A DNA stretch of 64,000 bases, taken from Alphaproteobacteria bacterium. GTDB taxonomy: Bacteria > Pseudomonadota > Alphaproteobacteria > DSM-16000 > Inquilinaceae. This document shows positions 29,844 to 42,929 of this stretch, piece by piece. The notes under the pieces are model-generated. The model ran no database searches. It was given only the letters and a program-made list of their open reading frames with translations, and was not told the origin of the DNA. The first letter of the stretch is position 1. The number at the start of each line of letters is the position of its first letter. The DNA is taken from the NCBI GenBank assembly GCA_028277405.1, contig JANQGH010000084.1, positions 1-64,000 of the forward strand. Reading direction: 5' to 3'. A program made the translations under genes and the position numbers.

Positions 29844-30793
29844 GATTTCCTCCCATTTTCAGGTTCGTTGCCTGTTTGTGGTGCGTCCAACGCGTCGCTC
29901 ATGGCCCGGAGATGGCGGGTAACGCGCTGGCGCAGCGCGTCTGCCTGCTCTGCCGTCCAAACGCGAAAGCCATGGCCGGTCTTCATGCCCAGCCGGCCCT
30001 CGGCAACGATTTCGCGGTGGATCGGCAAGGGCTCGGATGACCGGTCGAGCGCCGGCAGCACATGGTCATGGATGTCCAAGGTCAGGTCGGTGCCGACCAG
30101 GTCCGCGTTCTCCAGCGGTCCCAAGACGGCCAGCCGGCGGCCGAAGCTCGCTTTCACGACCGTATCCACGGTCTCGGCATCGCAGACGCCCTCGCCGACC
30201 AAGGCGATCGCTTCGCGCCACAGCGCATGCTGAAGCCGGTTGCCGACGAAACCGGCGATATCCTTTTTGACATGGACCGGCGTTTTGCCGACCGACGTCA
30301 GCAGGGCCATCATGTGCGCGATGGTCTCGTCGGACGTACCATCGGCCTGTACGACCTCGACCAGGGGGACCAGATAAGGCGGGTTCCACCAGTGCGTACC
30401 GACAACGCGGTGCCGGGTCTCAATCCGTTCGGCGATCTGACCGATGGGGATGACCGAGGTGTTGCTGGCCAGAAGTGCGTCAGGCCGGGCCGCCCGTTCC
30501 AGGTCGGTGAAGATCGACTGCTTTAGGGCAAGCTTTTCCGGCGCGGCCTCAAACACGATATCGGCCATCCCGACCGCCTCGGAGAGGTCGGAATGCCCAG
30601 AGACCTGGTTGACCGCGTCGGCATTTTGGCCAAGCGCCGCCAGGTTGTCGGCGATGCGCTGATGCAAGCTGGCCAGGCTCTCCGGCTGGGGATCGAAAAC
30701 GCGGACCGAATGACCGGCCGACGCGAAGACTTGGGCGATGCCGTGGCCCATCAGACCGGCACCGACGACCGCGATGATCTCGCGTCCGGTCAT
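29840..30793 (-). CDS. 3-hydroxyacyl-CoA dehydrogenase family protein
   Basis: 317-residue NAD-dependent dehydrogenase. GAGLMG at 11-16 binds NAD; the catalytic His and its partner Glu are in GTHWWNPPYLVPLVEVV; GFVGNRLQHALWREA marks the C-terminal dimer domain. The WWNPP variant is common in members acting on substrates other than fatty acyl-CoA. The ATG at 30793 overlaps the SDR stop by four bases, and its own stop overlaps the binding-protein start. Likely oxidises a hydroxy acid or its CoA ester in this operon. Confidence 0.9.
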   Translation of the reverse strand: MTGREIIAVVGAGLMGHGIAQVFASAGHSVRVFDPQPESLASLHQRIADNLAALGQNADAVNQVSGHSDLSEAVGMADIVFEAAPEKLALKQSIFTDLERAARPDALLASNTSVIPIGQIAERIETRHRVVGTHWWNPPYLVPLVEVVQADGTSDETIAHMMALLTSVGKTPVHVKKDIAGFVGNRLQHALWREAIALVGEGVCDAETVDTVVKASFGRRLAVLGPLENADLVGTDLTLDIHDHVLPALDRSSEPLPIHREIVAEGRLGMKTGHGFRVWTAEQADALRQRVTRHLRAMSDALDAPQTGNEPENGRKS

Positions 30794-31590
30794 CCCGCCG
30801 TATAGCCGCCGTCGGCGTGCAGAATGTGGCCGGTATAAAAGTCCGAGGCCTTGGACGCCAGGAACAGGAGCGGACCGGCCAGATCCTCGGGCTCGCCCAG
30901 GCGCCCCTTTGGTACACGCGTCAGGAAACCGGCGCGCACGCTTTTTGCCTCCTCGGTGTCCTCGAACATCCACGCCGTCAGCGGCGAGCGGAAGACTGTG
31001 GGCGCGATGGCGTTCACCGTGATGCCGGTTGGCCCAAGCTCGCAGCCAAGCGCCTTGGTAATGCCGTTCACGGCCGCCTTCGAGGCGCAATAGGCGGTGT
31101 AGCCGGCGGGGTGGCCCAGAAGGCTGCGCGCGGAGCTGAGCAGCACGATCTTGCCGCCACGTCCCTGCGCCTTCATCCGTTCGGTCGCGGCGCGGCAGAG
31201 CAGCCAGCTTTGGGTCACGTTGGCGTCCATCACGCCGGTGAAGGCCTCGACCGACATCTCGTCGATCTTGGCGACCTGGTTCATACCCGACGCAACCACC
31301 AGGATGTCGAGCGCGCCGAAGGCGTCCACCGCCTGGGCAACCAGGGCCGCGCAGGCCGCCTCGCTGTCCGGGCGCGTGTTCGCCTCCACCACCTCGGCAC
31401 CGCCGCCCCGGCATTCGCGCGCGATCTCGCCCAGCGCCTGGGCATTGCCCGCGGCCAGCACCAGCTTGCAGCCGGCCTTCGCCAAGACGCGCGCGGCGAC
31501 CATGCCGAACGCGCCGGAGGCACCGGTGATCAGGGCGACCTTGCCCGAAACGTCGAACAGGCCGAGCGGGTTGTCTTGCCAGTCGGTCAT
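30790..31590 (-). CDS. Short-chain dehydrogenase/reductase
   Basis: 266-residue SDR with ITGASGAFG as the cofactor motif (near residue 22), the Ser in LLSSARS and YCASK as the catalytic pair, and a C-terminal HILHADGGYTAG typical of the family. The usual NNAG is replaced by VASGMN. It overlaps the cupin gene upstream and the dehydrogenase gene downstream by four bases each, so it is part of a tightly coupled operon. The substrate is unknown. Confidence 0.9.
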   Translation of the reverse strand: MTDWQDNPLGLFDVSGKVALITGASGAFGMVAARVLAKAGCKLVLAAGNAQALGEIARECRGGGAEVVEANTRPDSEAACAALVAQAVDAFGALDILVVASGMNQVAKIDEMSVEAFTGVMDANVTQSWLLCRAATERMKAQGRGGKIVLLSSARSLLGHPAGYTAYCASKAAVNGITKALGCELGPTGITVNAIAPTVFRSPLTAWMFEDTEEAKSVRAGFLTRVPKGRLGEPEDLAGPLLFLASKASDFYTGHILHADGGYTAG

Positions 31591-31937
31591 GCGGCAGCCC
31601 CCGGCGGATACGGCATCACCACCAACATCGTGCAGACATCGTTGCCGCGATTGACGGCCTCGCGGACTTCGCCGGCCGGGATGGTGCACGAATCCATGCG
31701 CCCCAGAACGGTTTCCTCGCCGCCGATGATGACCGTCATCTCGCCGGACAGGATGACGTAGACCTTCTCGATCGGTGACGCGTCGGGGCCGGCGCCGCCG
31801 CCCGGCAGGTAATGGGACAGGCCGACCCAAGCGGTCTCCGGCCCGCCCTCCTCGAAACCCTGAAGGCGCAGCGAGCGAACGTCGCGATGGTTCGGCGCCT
31901 CGTAGGGCTCGGCTTTGGCGAAGCGTTTGACCAGCAT
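31587..31937 (-). CDS. Cupin-domain protein without the usual metal histidines
   Basis: 116-residue single-domain cupin. The two barrel motifs are recognisable as the region around IEKVYVILSGEMTVIIGGEE and CTIPAGEVREAVN. In the first motif, where metal cupins have His-x-His, this protein has GPDASPIEK, so metal binding as in dioxygenases is doubtful. The ATG at 31937 shares one base with the cyclase stop (TGATG); a longer open frame upstream is not protein-like. It may bind a small ligand or act as an auxiliary isomerase. Confidence 0.85.
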   Translation of the reverse strand: MLVKRFAKAEPYEAPNHRDVRSLRLQGFEEGGPETAWVGLSHYLPGGGAGPDASPIEKVYVILSGEMTVIIGGEETVLGRMDSCTIPAGEVREAVNRGNDVCTMLVVMPYPPGAAA

Positions 31938-32776
31938 CAGAACGCTTCCCCGGCCTCGATGCGGTAGGCTTGGTTCCGGTCGATCATCGCCACCAGGCGG
32001 ATAATGCAGCCATCGCCGCGATCCCAGTTCCAAGGGAAAAAGGCGAAGGTGCAGCGCTTGCCGGTGACCGCGTCGAGATCGCCGCCAACGTTTTCGATGC
32101 CCAGAATCCCGGCCCGGAACAGCTTTTGGTGCACGGGTTCCCAATCCGGGAAATCATCCGTCCAATCGTTGCCGCCGGACCATTCCTTGTATTCGTCGGC
32201 CAGGTGCGGCAACAGCGGGCCGTTGCGTTGCGGGCCGATCGCTGTGGCCAGCGGATGGTCGTTGGCCTGGGTGTCGTGGCCGACCACCTTGACGCCCTTT
32301 TCGATCATCCAGTCGGCTGCGGACGGGACCAGGCCGGGGCAATACGGGAAATAGTCGCCGTCCTCATACAGCTTGTGCCAGCCGGTATTGATGATCAGTA
32401 CGTCGCCGGGACGGATGGCGTGGCCGCAGGCCTGCTCCAAATCGTCGCCGGTGATCGGCTCCCACTTTTTCTTGGGTAGCGGCACAACCAGGCCGGAGCC
32501 AAAGAAGTGCGGCAGCGGCACCTCGTCGATGAACGGCGTGCCCTGCACCACATGGGCCGGCGCGTCGATATGGGTGGTGACATGCATGGTGGTGGTCAGC
32601 GTCTGCGACAGCACGCCGGACTTGGCCATATAGTGCATGCGCTCAATCCGCACGTCGCGGAAGTAAGGCCAGTTCGGGCACTGAAAGCCGTAGCGATGGG
32701 ACAGGTTGTAGAACTCCAGCCCCATCGGGTTGTCCAGATTGCCCTGAAACTCGATGCCCCTGACCGTCACCGACAT
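31937..32776 (-). CDS. Cyclase family protein (kynurenine formamidase-like, PF04199)
   Basis: 279-residue metal-dependent hydrolase of the cyclase/kynurenine formamidase family. The signature HVTTHIDAPAH supplies metal ligands; further conserved pieces are GDVLIINTGWHK and VVGHDTQANDHP. Members hydrolyse formamides, lactones or cyclic amides. GGGAGG six bases before ATG 32776 supports this start; ATG 32806 with GAAAGG is a real alternative. It leads the five-gene operon. Kynurenine formamidase would link to anthranilate, but the sequence alone does not establish that. Confidence 0.87.
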   Translation of the reverse strand: MSVTVRGIEFQGNLDNPMGLEFYNLSHRYGFQCPNWPYFRDVRIERMHYMAKSGVLSQTLTTTMHVTTHIDAPAHVVQGTPFIDEVPLPHFFGSGLVVPLPKKKWEPITGDDLEQACGHAIRPGDVLIINTGWHKLYEDGDYFPYCPGLVPSAADWMIEKGVKVVGHDTQANDHPLATAIGPQRNGPLLPHLADEYKEWSGGNDWTDDFPDWEPVHQKLFRAGILGIENVGGDLDAVTGKRCTFAFFPWNWDRGDGCIIRLVAMIDRNQAYRIEAGEAF

Positions 32777-38329: not shown

Positions 38330-39328
38330 ATGCTTGGCAAAATCGCGCTTGAAGAGCATTTCGCGACCGACGAGACGATCGATCAGGCCTCGCAGGCGGT
38401 TCCGGCCGCGCACTGGCCGGAACTTCGCGACCGGCTCGCCGACCTGCATGAGGGCCGCCTGCGGCAGATGGACGAAAACGGCATCGAGCTGGCGATACTC
38501 TCGCTCATTACGCCGGGGGTTCAGGGGATTACCGACACAGCCCTGGCGATCGATGTCGCCCGCCGCGCCAACGACTTTCTGGCCGAACAGGTCGCCAAAC
38601 GGCCGGACCGGTTCCAGGGCTTTGCCGCCCTGCCGATGCAGGACCCGGACGAAGCGGCGCGCGAGCTGGAGCGCTGCGTTCACGCGCTAGGCTTCCGCGG
38701 CGCGATGGTGAATGGCTTCAGCGAGACCGGCTCGACCTCGGCGTTACTCTACTACGATTTGGAGCAGTACCTGCCGTTCTGGGCCACGGTTCAGGACCTC
38801 GGCGTCCCGTTCTATCTGCACCCGCGCAACCCCTTGCCCCAGCACGCGAAGATCTATGACGGGCATCCCTGGCTGTTGGGGCCGACATGGGCGTTCGGCC
38901 AGGAAACGGCCGTCCATGCCCTGCGCCTGATGGGGTCGGGGCTGTTCGACAGATATCCCGCGCTGCAGATCATCTTGGGGCACCTCGGTGAAGGCCTGCC
39001 CTTCTCCCTTTGGCGGATCGACAACCGCCTGGCGTGGCTGAAGGAACCACCCCAGCACAGGGGGCGGCAAAAGATCGCGCACTATGTCCAAAACAACTTT
39101 CATCTGACGACGTCGGGCCAGCTTCATACGCCGAGCCTCGTCCAGGCGATGCTCGAGATCGGGTCGGACCGCATCTTGTTTTCCACCGACTGGCCGTTCG
39201 AAAACATGAACCATGCGGCGGACTGGTTCGACAGCGCCGGCATTAGCGAGCTCGATCGCGCCAAGATCGGCCGCCGGAACGCGATCACGCTGTTCAAGCT
39301 CAAAGACGTGCTTGGCGGAGATGGCTAG
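38330..39328 (+). CDS. Amidohydrolase-family aromatic acid decarboxylase, gamma-resorcylate decarboxylase type
   Basis: 332-residue PF04909 enzyme that removes CO2 non-oxidatively (and reversibly) from a dihydroxybenzoate. It agrees closely with 2,6-dihydroxybenzoate (gamma-resorcylate) decarboxylase of Rhizobium: metal ligands E8 and H10 (LEEHF), H164 (YLHPRNPLPQ) and D287 (STDWPFEN), with H218 (GHLGEGLP) in the active site, all at the same residue numbers as I recall for that enzyme. The next step, resorcinol catabolism, is not encoded in the window. 2,3-dihydroxybenzoate decarboxylase is the nearest alternative. Confidence 0.88.
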   Translation: MLGKIALEEHFATDETIDQASQAVPAAHWPELRDRLADLHEGRLRQMDENGIELAILSLITPGVQGITDTALAIDVARRANDFLAEQVAKRPDRFQGFAALPMQDPDEAARELERCVHALGFRGAMVNGFSETGSTSALLYYDLEQYLPFWATVQDLGVPFYLHPRNPLPQHAKIYDGHPWLLGPTWAFGQETAVHALRLMGSGLFDRYPALQIILGHLGEGLPFSLWRIDNRLAWLKEPPQHRGRQKIAHYVQNNFHLTTSGQLHTPSLVQAMLEIGSDRILFSTDWPFENMNHAADWFDSAGISELDRAKIGRRNAITLFKLKDVLGGDG

Positions 39329-39352: not shown

Positions 39353-39368
39353 TTTGACACGGGTCAAA
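39353..39368. promoter_or_regulatory. FNR/FixK-like box upstream of P-type ATPase
   Basis: TTTGAC-ACGG-GTCAAA is a perfect dyad in the FNR/CRP-family format (TTGAY-N4-RTCAA). Its centre is about 78 bases before the ATPase start. A -10-like CATAGA at 39392-39397 would put transcription start near 39403, placing the box close to -42, the class II activator position. This predicts induction at low oxygen. Confidence 0.55.
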
Positions 39369-39438
39369 GACGATTGGGCGGTGTGTCCCCACATAGACCC
39401 GGATCCGGAAATCCCGTTGCGATGAGAAGGAACCGAGC

Positions 39439-42204
39439 TTGTCCGTTCTTGAGCGGAGTGTCCTGCGCGAGAGCCCATCGAGCGTCGCTGCCGACGATCG
39501 GCCTTGGCATGCGCTGTCGGCCGACGACGCCCTTACCACCCAAGAAAGCAGCCCCAATGGATTGGGCGATACGGAAGCAGAGGCGCGGCTCGATAGGCTA
39601 GGCCCCAACCGACTGCCGGCCCCGAAGCGTCGCGGACCGCTGCCCCGGTTCCTGGCGCAGTTCCACAATGTCCTGATCTATGTGTTGCTGGGCGCAGCGG
39701 TCGTCACGGCGGTGCTGGGCCATTGGATCGACGCCCAGGTAATTCTGGCCGTGGTCTTGGTGAACGCCATTATCGGGTTTATTCAGGAGGGCAAGGCGGA
39801 GAACGCCCTGGCCGCCATCCGCAACATGCTGGCGCCCAAGGCCAGTGTCGTTCGCGACGGCAGGCGAAAGACGGTTTCGGGCGAGGATCTGGTGCCCGGC
39901 GATGTGGTCCTGCTGGAAGCCGGTGCCCGAACGCCCGCCGACGTCCGGTTGATCGAAGCCAAGAACCTGAAAATCGATGAGGCCGTGCTGACCGGTGAGT
40001 CGGTCGCTGTGGAAAAGGACGTCGCACCCGTCGGCGAAACGGTGGCGCTGGGCGACCGGACATCAATGGCGTTCAGCGGGACATTGGTGACCTATGGCCA
40101 CGGAAAAGGGGTGGTCGTCGCGACCGGCGGCCAGACCGCCATCGGCCGCATCAGCGGCATGCTGTCCGAGGTCACCACCCTGCAAACGCCGCTGACCCGG
40201 CAGATGGACGAGTTTGCCAAATGGCTGACCGGGTCGATCGTGGCGATCGGGGCGCTTGTGCTCGCGTTCGGCCTGCTGGTCCATGGTTACGACTTCAACG
40301 AGATCTTCATGGCGGTGGTCGGCCTGTCGGTCGCGGCCATTCCGGAAGGCCTGCCGGCGATCCTGACCGTCACGCTCGCGATCGGCGTGCAGGGCATGGC
40401 GCGACGCAACACGATCGTCCGCCGCTTGCCCGCCATCGAAACCCTCGGCTCGGTCTCCGTCATCTGCTCGGACAAGACCGGCACGCTGACGCGCAACGAG
40501 ATGACGGCCGTCTCCATCGCCACGGCGCGGCGGCTGTTCAAGGTCAGCGGCGTCGGCTACGCCCCGCTCGGGTCCATCTCGCTGGACGGGCAAGAGATCG
40601 ATCTCGAACGCTACCCGTTGCTTTTGGAGATCTCGCGCGCCGCCCTCTTGTGCAATGACGCAAACCTGCACGAGGTCGAGGGCGACTGGGCCATCGAGGG
40701 CGACCCGATGGAGGGGGCGCTGCTGACCGCCGCGGCAAAGGCCGGGTTCGACCACCACACCGAAACCCAGCGCTACACCCGCACGGACGTAATCCCGTTC
40801 GATTCCCAGCATCGGTTCATGGCGACCCTGCACCATGACCATGCTGGCGATGGCTTCATCTACGTGAAGGGCGCCCCGGAGCGCATTCTTGAGATGTGCT
40901 CGCACCAGCGCGGGTTCGACGGCGATGTGGACCTCGATATCGACTATTGGCATGCGCGGGCGGAAGAGATCGCGGCCGGTGGCCAGCGGGTTCTCGCCGT
41001 CGCGACCAAAGAGACCAGCAGCGACCACACGGTGCTGAACTTCGACGATGTCGACAACGAGCTTACTTTTCTGGGCCTGTTCGGCCTGATCGACCCGCCG
41101 CGCGAGGAGGCGATCACCGCCGTTGCGGAATGCCAGGCCGCCGGCATTCAGGTGAAGATGATCACCGGCGACCACGCCGCGACAGCCACGGCGATCGCCG
41201 GCCAACTCGGCTTGGACAATCCAAACGCGGCCCTGACCGGGCGCGATCTGGACACGCTGGATGACGAGACGCTGCGTCGCCGCGTCCAGGATACGGCCGT
41301 CTTCGCCCGCACCAGCCCCGGGCACAAGCTGCGCCTGGTCATGGCGCTGCAGGCCGGCGGCGCGGTCGTGGCGATGACCGGAGACGGCGTCAACGATGCG
41401 CCAGCGCTGAAGCGCGCCGATGTCGGCGTCGCGATGGGGCGAACCGGTAGCGAGGCGGCGAAAGAAGCCTCTGAGATGGTGCTGGCCGACGACAATTTCG
41501 CCACCATCGCCCAGGCCGTGCGGGCCGGGCGCACCGTCTACGACAACCTGAAGAAGGCAATTCTGTTCATCCTGCCGACGAATGGCGGACAGGCCCTGAT
41601 CATGATCGCCGCCATCCTGCTTGGCTTCACCTTGCCGATCACGGCGGTTCAGATCCTGTGGGTCAACATGGTGACGGCGGTGACCTTGGCCTTGGCACTT
41701 GCCTTTGAGCCGGCGGAACCGAACGTGATGCGGCGACCACCCAGAACGTCAAGCGATGCCATTCTGTCCAGGTTCCTGGTCTGGCGCGTCGTCTTCGTCT
41801 CGGTCGTGTTTCTCGCCGCCCTATCCTTCAAATTCGCGCTGGCCCAGGCGCAAGGCGCCAGCATCGAAGAGGCGCGCACCATCGTCGTCAACACGCTGGT
41901 CGTGCTTGAGATCTTCTATCTGTTCAGCGTTCGCTACCAGACCACGACATCGATGACCTGGCAGGGCGTGAAGGGAACGCCGGCCGTCCTGATCGCGGTC
42001 GGCACGGTGATCGTCCTGCAGCTCATCTTCACCTATGTGCCGTTCATGGAGGCCTTCTTCGACACCCGTCCGCTCAGCTTTTTCGAGGGCGTTCAGGTGA
42101 TCGCCACCGGCATCGTGGTCTTCTTCATCCTCGAGGCCGAGAAATGGGTGCAGGCGAAGATGAATGGCCGAAATGGCGGGGAAGCACCGGCGGCACAAGG
42201 GTAG
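39439..42204 (+). CDS. P-type cation-transporting ATPase, P2A (calcium-pump-like)
   Basis: 921-residue membrane pump. Visible in order: cation-ATPase N-domain (LSADDALTTQESSPNGLG), actuator TGES at 185-188, transmembrane helix 4 with AAIPEGLPAI, phosphorylated D345 in DKTGTLT, the nucleotide domain with KGAPERI, the hinge MTGDGVNDAPALKRADVGVA and a C-terminal cation-ATPase domain. The PEGLP helix is the SERCA/PMR1 form, so calcium or manganese export is most likely. The start is TTG with GAAGGA upstream. An FNR-like box precedes it. Confidence 0.94.
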   Translation: MSVLERSVLRESPSSVAADDRPWHALSADDALTTQESSPNGLGDTEAEARLDRLGPNRLPAPKRRGPLPRFLAQFHNVLIYVLLGAAVVTAVLGHWIDAQVILAVVLVNAIIGFIQEGKAENALAAIRNMLAPKASVVRDGRRKTVSGEDLVPGDVVLLEAGARTPADVRLIEAKNLKIDEAVLTGESVAVEKDVAPVGETVALGDRTSMAFSGTLVTYGHGKGVVVATGGQTAIGRISGMLSEVTTLQTPLTRQMDEFAKWLTGSIVAIGALVLAFGLLVHGYDFNEIFMAVVGLSVAAIPEGLPAILTVTLAIGVQGMARRNTIVRRLPAIETLGSVSVICSDKTGTLTRNEMTAVSIATARRLFKVSGVGYAPLGSISLDGQEIDLERYPLLLEISRAALLCNDANLHEVEGDWAIEGDPMEGALLTAAAKAGFDHHTETQRYTRTDVIPFDSQHRFMATLHHDHAGDGFIYVKGAPERILEMCSHQRGFDGDVDLDIDYWHARAEEIAAGGQRVLAVATKETSSDHTVLNFDDVDNELTFLGLFGLIDPPREEAITAVAECQAAGIQVKMITGDHAATATAIAGQLGLDNPNAALTGRDLDTLDDETLRRRVQDTAVFARTSPGHKLRLVMALQAGGAVVAMTGDGVNDAPALKRADVGVAMGRTGSEAAKEASEMVLADDNFATIAQAVRAGRTVYDNLKKAILFILPTNGGQALIMIAAILLGFTLPITAVQILWVNMVTAVTLALALAFEPAEPNVMRRPPRTSSDAILSRFLVWRVVFVSVVFLAALSFKFALAQAQGASIEEARTIVVNTLVVLEIFYLFSVRYQTTTSMTWQGVKGTPAVLIAVGTVIVLQLIFTYVPFMEAFFDTRPLSFFEGVQVIATGIVVFFILEAEKWVQAKMNGRNGGEAPAAQG

Positions 42205-42257: not shown

Positions 42258-42929
42258 TTACAGGTCGAGCCCCTCGGCCGCGACCCGAAACTCGTTCAGC
42301 CGCGCCGCTAGGTCGTCCGCGATCCCGGCGATCTCGTCCTGCCGCGCCGCGTCGAAATTGACGATCAGGGCCAGCCGGTCCCACAGGTCCAGGTAAGCCG
42401 TGCAGGAGGGGTACGGTGCGACCTCCTCGTCGGTGCAGGTGATCAGGCCCCTCACCTCGCCGCCTTCGACCAGTACGTTCCAATCCTGCACGTCGGCGTC
42501 GCTGAGCGGGCCGCGGACGGGCTGCAAGCCTCCCTGCGCCAGGTCGAGATCGTCGATCGACCAATGGCCGCGTTCCACGCCTTGTTCGAACCGCTGCTCG
42601 ACCGTCAGGCCGAAATTCAGGGTGGTGAGATTGGCCAGGACGACCGGGCCGAAGCCCGGCTCGTCGAGCGTGCCTTCCATTTCCGGCGTGACCGGCCCCA
42701 TGTCCGGCAGCACGAAGAACAGGTTGACCGACCCTACCGGGCCGTCGCTTTGCAGCTCGCGGTTCCAGATATGCTCCGCCGGGATGGTCAGCGGCTGATC
42801 GCCGATTTCCAGCCTCACATATTCCGTTTCGGCGCCGGCGGCGGCCGGCAGGAGGGCCGCAATAAGCGCGCCCGCCGCAAAAGCCGGTCGGCTACTCCAC
42901 AAGCGCGGGCTCTTTCGGCTTGCCCGCAT
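42258..42929 (-). CDS. Exported protein of unknown function
   Basis: I do not recognise the family. The 223-residue product has a signal peptide (about 1-33, ending PAAAGA) and a mature, acidic region. Two cysteines (GLITCTDEE and YPSCTAY) may pair. The gene starts 38 bases inside the 3' end of clpA in another frame, so it is probably translated from the clpA transcript by coupling, although a clpA-independent role is likely because the product is exported. It is convergent with the ATPase gene. Confidence 0.72.
   Translation of the reverse strand: MRASRKSPRLWSSRPAFAAGALIAALLPAAAGAETEYVRLEIGDQPLTIPAEHIWNRELQSDGPVGSVNLFFVLPDMGPVTPEMEGTLDEPGFGPVVLANLTTLNFGLTVEQRFEQGVERGHWSIDDLDLAQGGLQPVRGPLSDADVQDWNVLVEGGEVRGLITCTDEEVAPYPSCTAYLDLWDRLALIVNFDAARQDEIAGIADDLAARLNEFRVAAEGLDL

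What the first reader, a model, noticed from the sequence alone, without database searches (positions are those of the whole stretch)
39353..39397. FNR/FixK-like class II promoter before a calcium-type P-ATPase
A perfect TTTGAC-N4-GTCAAA dyad stands about 42 bases before a start predicted from a CATAGA -10. Cation pumps of this type belong to low-oxygen regulons in other bacteria (for example CtpF in the mycobacterial DosR regulon). It predicts oxygen-controlled cation export in this organism.
Basis: partly seen in the sequence, partly recalled or inferred. Interest (0 to 1): 0.55.

Follow-up and report, generated by a model that had tools for sequence, protein, structure and literature searches.

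The report
Low-oxygen switch before an ion pump
A DNA site of the kind read by a well-known bacterial oxygen sensor stands before an ion-pump gene, much as in Pseudomonas aeruginosa, so it is most likely a new member of a known kind rather than a new system.

Summary
The dyad TTTGAC-ACGG-GTCAAA is exactly where reported (39353-39368), alone in a short intergenic gap before a P2-type ATPase gene. It fits the FNR/FnrL site class. The genome has two FNR-type regulators (four cysteines, ETVSR recognition helix). Its 40 TTGAY-N4-RTCAA sites include ones before hemN, ccoN, pyruvate formate lyase, three universal stress proteins, narK, PhaC and two Na+/H+ exchangers. In this set, -10-like hexamers peak at the class II distance. 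The P. aeruginosa homologue beside lasR (inferred PA1429, a listed Anr-regulon gene) carries TTTGAG-ACAG-GTCAAA 73 bp before its ATG. Weak points: the window's own -10 (CATAGA) matches 3 of 6 and lies 24, not 22, bases after the dyad core; only a minority of relatives have the site; "calcium-type" is unproven, because the M6 aspartate of LMCA1 and SPCA1 is Ala/Ser/Thr in all 80 aligned members. Verdict: real and probably oxygen-controlled. The principle is already known from Anr-PA1429 and DosR-CtpF, so this is a new member of a known kind, of low interest. The open point is which ion the pump moves.

The parts
39353..39368 (+). FNR/FnrL-type dyad TTTGAC-ACGG-GTCAAA (core TTGAC-N4-GTCAA 39354-39367)
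   Evidence: site class matches FnrL ChIP-chip sites listed in PMC2908626
39392..39397 (+). weak -10-like hexamer CATAGA, 24 bases after the dyad core
   Evidence: 3 of 6 matches to TATAAT; no sigma-70 promoter called
39426..39431 (+). probable ribosome-binding site GAAGGA
   Evidence: read from the sequence; inference
39439..42204 (+). P2-type cation ATPase gene, 921 aa, TTG start; ion unknown
   Evidence: Pfam Cation_ATPase_N/C, E1-E2_ATPase, Hydrolase; best NCBIfam PMR1-type 665.7 bits, cut-off 798.3; LMCA1 and SPCA1 are the best solved relatives
38330..39328 (+). upstream neighbour, Amidohydro_2 gene; not part of the regulatory unit as far as seen

Best explanation
The dyad is a binding site for an FNR/FnrL-type Crp-family regulator. 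When oxygen is scarce, the regulator's [4Fe-4S] form dimerises, binds the dyad upstream of the ATPase promoter and activates transcription, probably from a class II or near-class II position. The result is low-oxygen induction of a P2-type cation pump, together with universal stress proteins, Na+/H+ exchangers, pyruvate formate lyase, PHA synthase and the high-affinity oxidase. Shown here: the dyad, its place, the regulator genes, the other sites and their downstream genes, and a matching site in P. aeruginosa. Inferred: binding, activation, oxygen as signal, direction of transport and ion.
For: Two FNR-type proteins with four cysteines and ETVSR, matching solved FNR chains at 1e-37 for one of them. 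40 N4 sites against 12 and 18 with other spacers, 31 of 40 intergenic. Downstream genes include hemN and ccoN above their equivalog cut-offs, and Usp, PFL, NarK and PhaC. -10 scores peak at the class II distance over 38 orientations without the window, z 3.9, 0 of 2000 shuffles. The P. aeruginosa homologue next to lasR, 56% identical, has TTTGAGACAGGTCAAA at -73, and PA1429 is listed in the anr regulon (PMC8087004). 4 of 18 named plasmid relatives have a perfect site at a transcription-unit start, against 0 for every other spacer. TTGAC-N4-GTCAA sites are bound by FnrL in vivo in R. sphaeroides (PMC2908626 Table 2).
Against: The window's own -10 is poor and lies 24 bases from the core, not 22. 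Only 2 of 80 genome-contig relatives have a perfect site, 7 of 80 at <=1 mismatch, not clearly above other spacers. N5 sites are also mostly intergenic (9 of 12), and when a downstream gene is required the N4 excess over controls is p 0.09. Neither FNR-like protein reaches the FnrL equivalog cut-off.
Confidence: 0.72

Rival explanations
1. Another Crp/Fnr-family member that reads the same kind of site, such as the FtrB-like protein on C8 or a FixK/DNR-type protein, is the main regulator, so the signal is redox, NO or something else rather than oxygen through FNR.
For: The C8 protein is an FtrB equivalog without cysteines, with two perfect N4 sites between it and a NarK-family gene. FNR, FixK and DNR sites are called virtually identical in PMC2908626.
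Against: Two FNR-type proteins with the cysteine set are present, and the sites also stand before hemN and ccoN, which are core FNR targets in alphaproteobacteria.
Confidence: 0.13
2. An FNR-type regulator binds here but not as a class II activator: it represses, or acts on a start site elsewhere.
For: Weak -10 at 24 bases from the core; several R. sphaeroides FnrL targets are repressed (PMC2908626 Table 2).
Against: The gap is short, with no better promoter found, and the inferred PA1429 homologue has GATAGT at 22 bases.
Confidence: 0.1
3. Chance dyad: no regulator binds it, or its left arm TTGACA is only a -35-like hexamer.
For: About 0.4 perfect 12-base dyads are expected in the genome and 1 is found, the same as for the reversed control. 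N5 and N6 counts imply that roughly 12-18 of the 40 core sites could be background.
Against: TTGACA 39354-39359 has no -10 at 16-18 bases. The dyad is in a 110-bp gap before a homologue of a listed Anr-regulon gene that has a matching site.
Confidence: 0.05

Closest known systems
Anr regulon of Pseudomonas aeruginosa, gene PA1429
   Same: Homologous pump (56% over 892 residues); FNR-type dyad at a similar distance, TTTGAG-ACAG-GTCAAA at -73; listed among anr regulon genes (PMC8087004 Table 1, passages).
   Different: The dyad there has one half-site mismatch and a better -10 at 22 bases (GATAGT); the neighbours are different (lasR). That L198 is PA1429 is inferred from its place beside lasR (PA1430, recalled); the copy read lies on a plasmid.
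FnrL regulon of Rhodobacter (Cereibacter) sphaeroides
   Same: Site class TTGAY-N4-RTCAA including TTGAC-N4-GTCAA; targets ccoN, hemN/hemZ, uspA and fnrL itself (PMC2908626 Tables 1 and 2, passages).
   Different: The P-type ATPase named in that core regulon is a heavy-metal one (RSP0690), not a P2 type; the C. sphaeroides 2.4.1 homologue on plasmid pC shows no site.
CtpF in the DosR regulon of Mycobacterium tuberculosis
   Same: A P2-type ATPase induced by hypoxia with a dormancy regulon (PMC9180918, PMC4119724, passages).
   Different: DosR is a response regulator (recalled), not a Crp/Fnr protein. The CtpF sequence was not compared here.
LMCA1 (lmo0841) and human SPCA1 Ca2+-ATPases
   Same: Best solved relatives, alignment over nearly the whole protein.
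   Different: The M6 aspartate is replaced by Ala 747 here and by Ala/Ser/Thr in all 80 aligned members.

Membership tests
FNR/FnrL-type binding site | TTGAY-N4-RTCAA dyad | tested here: met
   perfect at 39354-39367
FNR/FnrL-type binding site | the genome encodes an FNR-type regulator with the cysteine set and E..SR helix | tested here: met
   L002 and L004; both below the FnrL equivalog cut-off
FNR/FnrL-type binding site | bound by the regulator at low oxygen | not testable with these tools
   needs gel shift or ChIP
class II FNR-activated promoter | dyad centre about -41.5, i.e. -10 hexamer 22 bases after the core | tested here: inconclusive
   best hexamer CATAGA at 24 bases, 3 of 6; the regulon as a whole peaks at 22
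Ca2+-transporting P2A ATPase | score above a Ca2+-ATPase equivalog cut-off | tested here: not met
   PMR1-type 665.7 of 798.3; SERCA-type 599.9 of 703.4
Ca2+-transporting P2A ATPase | M4 glutamate (PEG.P) and M6 asparagine-aspartate pair | tested here: not met
   E303 and N743 present, aspartate replaced by A747
Ca2+-transporting P2A ATPase | Ca2+-dependent transport | not testable with these tools
   needs assay
type II (P2) P-type ATPase | Cation_ATPase_N/C, E1-E2 and phosphorylation motif DKTGT | tested here: met
DosR-type dormancy regulon | DosR response regulator and its site | not tested
   only the functional parallel (Usp genes and a P2 ATPase behind like sites) was seen

The most novel reading that the evidence does not exclude
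The ATPase belongs to a widespread P2 subfamily that lacks the Ca2+-site M6 aspartate, pumps an ion other than Ca2+ (for example Na+, K+ or Mg2+), and is recruited again and again, by separate gains of FNR-type sites and by linkage to Usp and Na+/H+ antiporter genes, into low-oxygen survival regulons: an ATP-driven ion-balance module for cells whose respiration has stopped.
Probability: 0.25. Interest if true: 0.5.

Novelty: new member of a known kind. Interest (0 to 1): 0.22.

Why it matters
It adds a further, probably alphaproteobacterial case (class inferred, not tested) to the pattern that bacteria switch on a P2-type pump when oxygen runs out, as Pseudomonas does with PA1429 and Mycobacterium with CtpF. 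It also points to a testable gap: the pump's ion is assumed to be calcium, but a residue that the solved Ca2+ pumps LMCA1 and SPCA1 carry is missing throughout the aligned members of this subfamily.

Tried and rejected
A whole-window count of the dyad at up to 2 mismatches gave no excess over shuffles. A site search in a fixed 400 bp upstream of 80 relatives gave only 2 perfect and 9 <=1-mismatch loci at N4, close to other spacers (N8: 3 and 7). A weight-matrix version gave 9 of 80 at score 10 or more, against 1-7 for other spacers. Counting at the start of the transcription unit sharpened it for 18 named plasmid relatives but not for the 80. Of the 18, six were fetched first and twelve afterwards, chosen by me for spread from 60 listed records of 228. 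One of the 18 (L197) has no annotation; I used match starts for L197 and L206.

Of the five same-family relatives whose ATPase upstream I scanned (L118, L119, L120, L121, L133), none has a perfect site. G008 (L118) has TTGACGCAGATCAT 22 bp before its called start, and L133 has a 1-mismatch site about 775 bp upstream. For the minus-strand loci the scan looked at the wrong end; one search repeated it at the right one.

The idea that the FnrL ChIP target RSP4201-4 of C. sphaeroides is this ATPase was dropped: that target is on plasmid P004 near 51.7 kb in the paper, while the homologue is at 7.5 kb of plasmid pC. The idea that a FixK target of Sinorhizobium (SMa1163, recalled) is a homologue: no paper found. 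The idea that the Burkholderia low-oxygen locus (recalled) holds this ATPase: the two papers searched did not show it. Phrase searches for an FNR regulon with a cation-transporting ATPase and a universal stress protein found no paper.

M6 counts leave out L059, so they are 79 relatives plus the window. In the Methylocystis plasmid relative (L206) an Asp stands one place earlier (NLVDG).

Full report
Observation. The window is bases 1-64000 of contig C55 of a 6.2-Mb draft genome. TTTGACACGGGTCAAA lies at 39353-39368 between an Amidohydro_2 gene (38330-39328) and a 921-aa P2-type ATPase gene (39439-42204, TTG start, probable ribosome-binding site GAAGGA 39426-39431). The dyad is perfect. By genome-wide count alone it is not remarkable: one 12-base match in the genome and one for the reversed control, with about 0.4 expected (my arithmetic).

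Regulators. Scanning the genome with HTH_Crp_2 gave 33 matches. I read the seven best as proteins. Two, both on contig C98, carry the FNR features: L002 (cysteines 24, 27, 35, 123, counted from an inner start) and L004 (14, 17, 25, 113/114, likewise), each with ETVSR in the recognition helix. L002 matches the solved 'FNR type regulator' chains at 1e-37 over residues 21-245 and FixK2 at 1.6e-36. Against NCBIfam both hit FnrL best but stay below its cut-off of 300 bits (178.7 and 267.4); a third gene, on C8, is an FtrB equivalog (333.4 bits, cut-off 211).

Regulon. TTGAY-N4-RTCAA occurs 40 times, against 12 with N5, 18 with N6 and 3 for the reversed N4 pattern, so perhaps 12-18 of the 40 are background. 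With a home-made gene caller, 31 of 40 N4 sites are intergenic, 9 of 12 N5 and 5 of 18 N6; the non-coding share of the surveyed sequence is 12%. The N4 set differs from the pooled controls at p 0.012 for intergenic place and p 0.09 when a downstream gene within 350 bp is required. I scanned 40 proteins against Pfam in four calls: 37 genes next to sites, plus L002, L004 and a second reading of the C8 gene. Downstream genes include hemN, ccoN, a formate C-acetyltransferase, three Usp genes, an S30AE-type gene, POR, PhaC, two Na+/H+ exchangers, a NarK-family gene and the C8 FtrB-like gene. hemN and ccoN pass their equivalog cut-offs. Other sites stand before genes with no known link to oxygen (solute-binding proteins, glycosyltransferase, gamma-glutamyltranspeptidase and others), and nine sites are inside called genes. 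One of these nine, in the called frame of L002, lies about 120 bp before its more likely inner start.

Geometry. Scoring -10 likeness at each distance from the dyad core over 38 site-to-gene orientations, with the window left out, gives one outstanding peak at 22 bases, the class II distance (z 3.9; 0 of 2000 base shuffles). The N5/N6 controls (21 orientations) show no clear peak among the distances printed (19-25): -4.26 at 22 bases, against -4.33 and -4.37 at 19 and 20. I had seen the peak before testing it; 22 is also the distance expected from recalled class II architecture. The window's own best hexamer is CATAGA at 24 bases, 3 of 6, so this promoter fits class II only loosely.

Relatives. 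The nearest genome-contig relative (L037, 78% identical, labelled Porticoccaceae) has TTGACTGAGATCAA at -75 from its ATG. The P. aeruginosa homologue next to lasR (L198; inferred to be PA1429) is 56% identical and has TTTGAGACAGGTCAAA at -73, with GATAGT 22 bases after the core (the hexamer was read by eye). Counting at transcription-unit starts, 4 of 18 named plasmid relatives have a perfect N4 site and 7 of 18 have one with at most one mismatch; other spacers give 0 and 0-2. Among 80 genome-contig relatives the figures are 2 and 7, against 0-2 and 1-6. The site is therefore recurrent but sporadic: some lineages have it, most do not.

The pump. The protein has all type II domains but is below the equivalog cut-offs for PMR1-type and SERCA-type Ca2+ pumps. 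Against LMCA1 and SPCA1 the M6 aspartate aligns with Ala 747. In 79 relatives plus the window that column is Ala 60, Ser 15, Thr 5, and the P. aeruginosa homologue has Ser. The M4 glutamate is kept in all 79 members aligned at that column. The M5 position is Glu in 64, Gln in 15 (the window among them), Asp in 1. Ca2+ is therefore not established as the ion. PMC5770612 (passage) says PA1429 affects calcium homeostasis, citing work I did not read; as that homologue also lacks the aspartate, the missing residue does not by itself exclude a calcium role.

Neighbourhood of relatives. Among 17 annotated plasmid relatives, a universal stress protein gene is within the fetched stretch in 5 (L199, L204, L205, L208, L211) and a Na+/H+ or cation:proton antiporter in 4 (L200, L204, L210, L211); L203 has pflAB and L195 an Hsp20 gene. 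In the window's genome such functions are scattered but carry the same kind of site. This fits a low-oxygen or energy-stress role, though no control family was counted.

What is known. PMC2908626 (passages) gives the alphaproteobacterial FNR regulon and FnrL ChIP-chip sites, several of the TTGAC-N4-GTCAA form, and says that FNR, FixK and DNR sites are virtually identical. PMC8087004 (passages) lists PA1429 among anr regulon genes. PMC8575079 (passages) lists it with a single 'U' for the anaerobic response; the plain text does not show in which of the two columns. PMC9180918 and PMC4119724 (passages) describe CtpF as DosR-controlled and hypoxia-induced. Oxygen control of such a pump through an FNR-family factor is thus already known in kind.

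Verdict. Most likely a true FNR-type site and a low-oxygen-induced pump (confidence 0.72). It is a new member of a known kind, with a weak -10 and an open question about the ion.

Noticed in passing
G000:C66:113476-113531 (L191 3007-3062): Three tandem TTGAC-N5-GTCAA palindromes within 56 bases between two divergent genes; looks like a multi-operator of another repressor or activator.
   Followed up: no
window 31926-31941: A weaker FNR-like dyad: on the minus strand its core reads CTGAT-GCTG-GTCAA, about 96 bp before the gene 30790-31830 (-).
   Followed up: no
L199, L204, L205, L208, L211, L200, L210, L203: Relatives of this ATPase on plasmids often sit beside universal stress protein, Na+/H+ antiporter or pyruvate formate lyase genes.
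   Followed up: partly
L043, L046, L205: In several relatives a small helix-turn-helix gene lies directly before the ATPase, and the FNR-type site stands before that small gene.
   Followed up: partly
L037: The closest relative found (78%) is on a short contig of a MAG labelled as a gammaproteobacterium, closer than any in the window's own family (61% at best); gene transfer or a mis-binned contig.
   Followed up: no
window 42258-42929 (-): A 223-aa called gene next to the ATPase with no Pfam match at 0.001 and no NCBIfam match.
   Followed up: no
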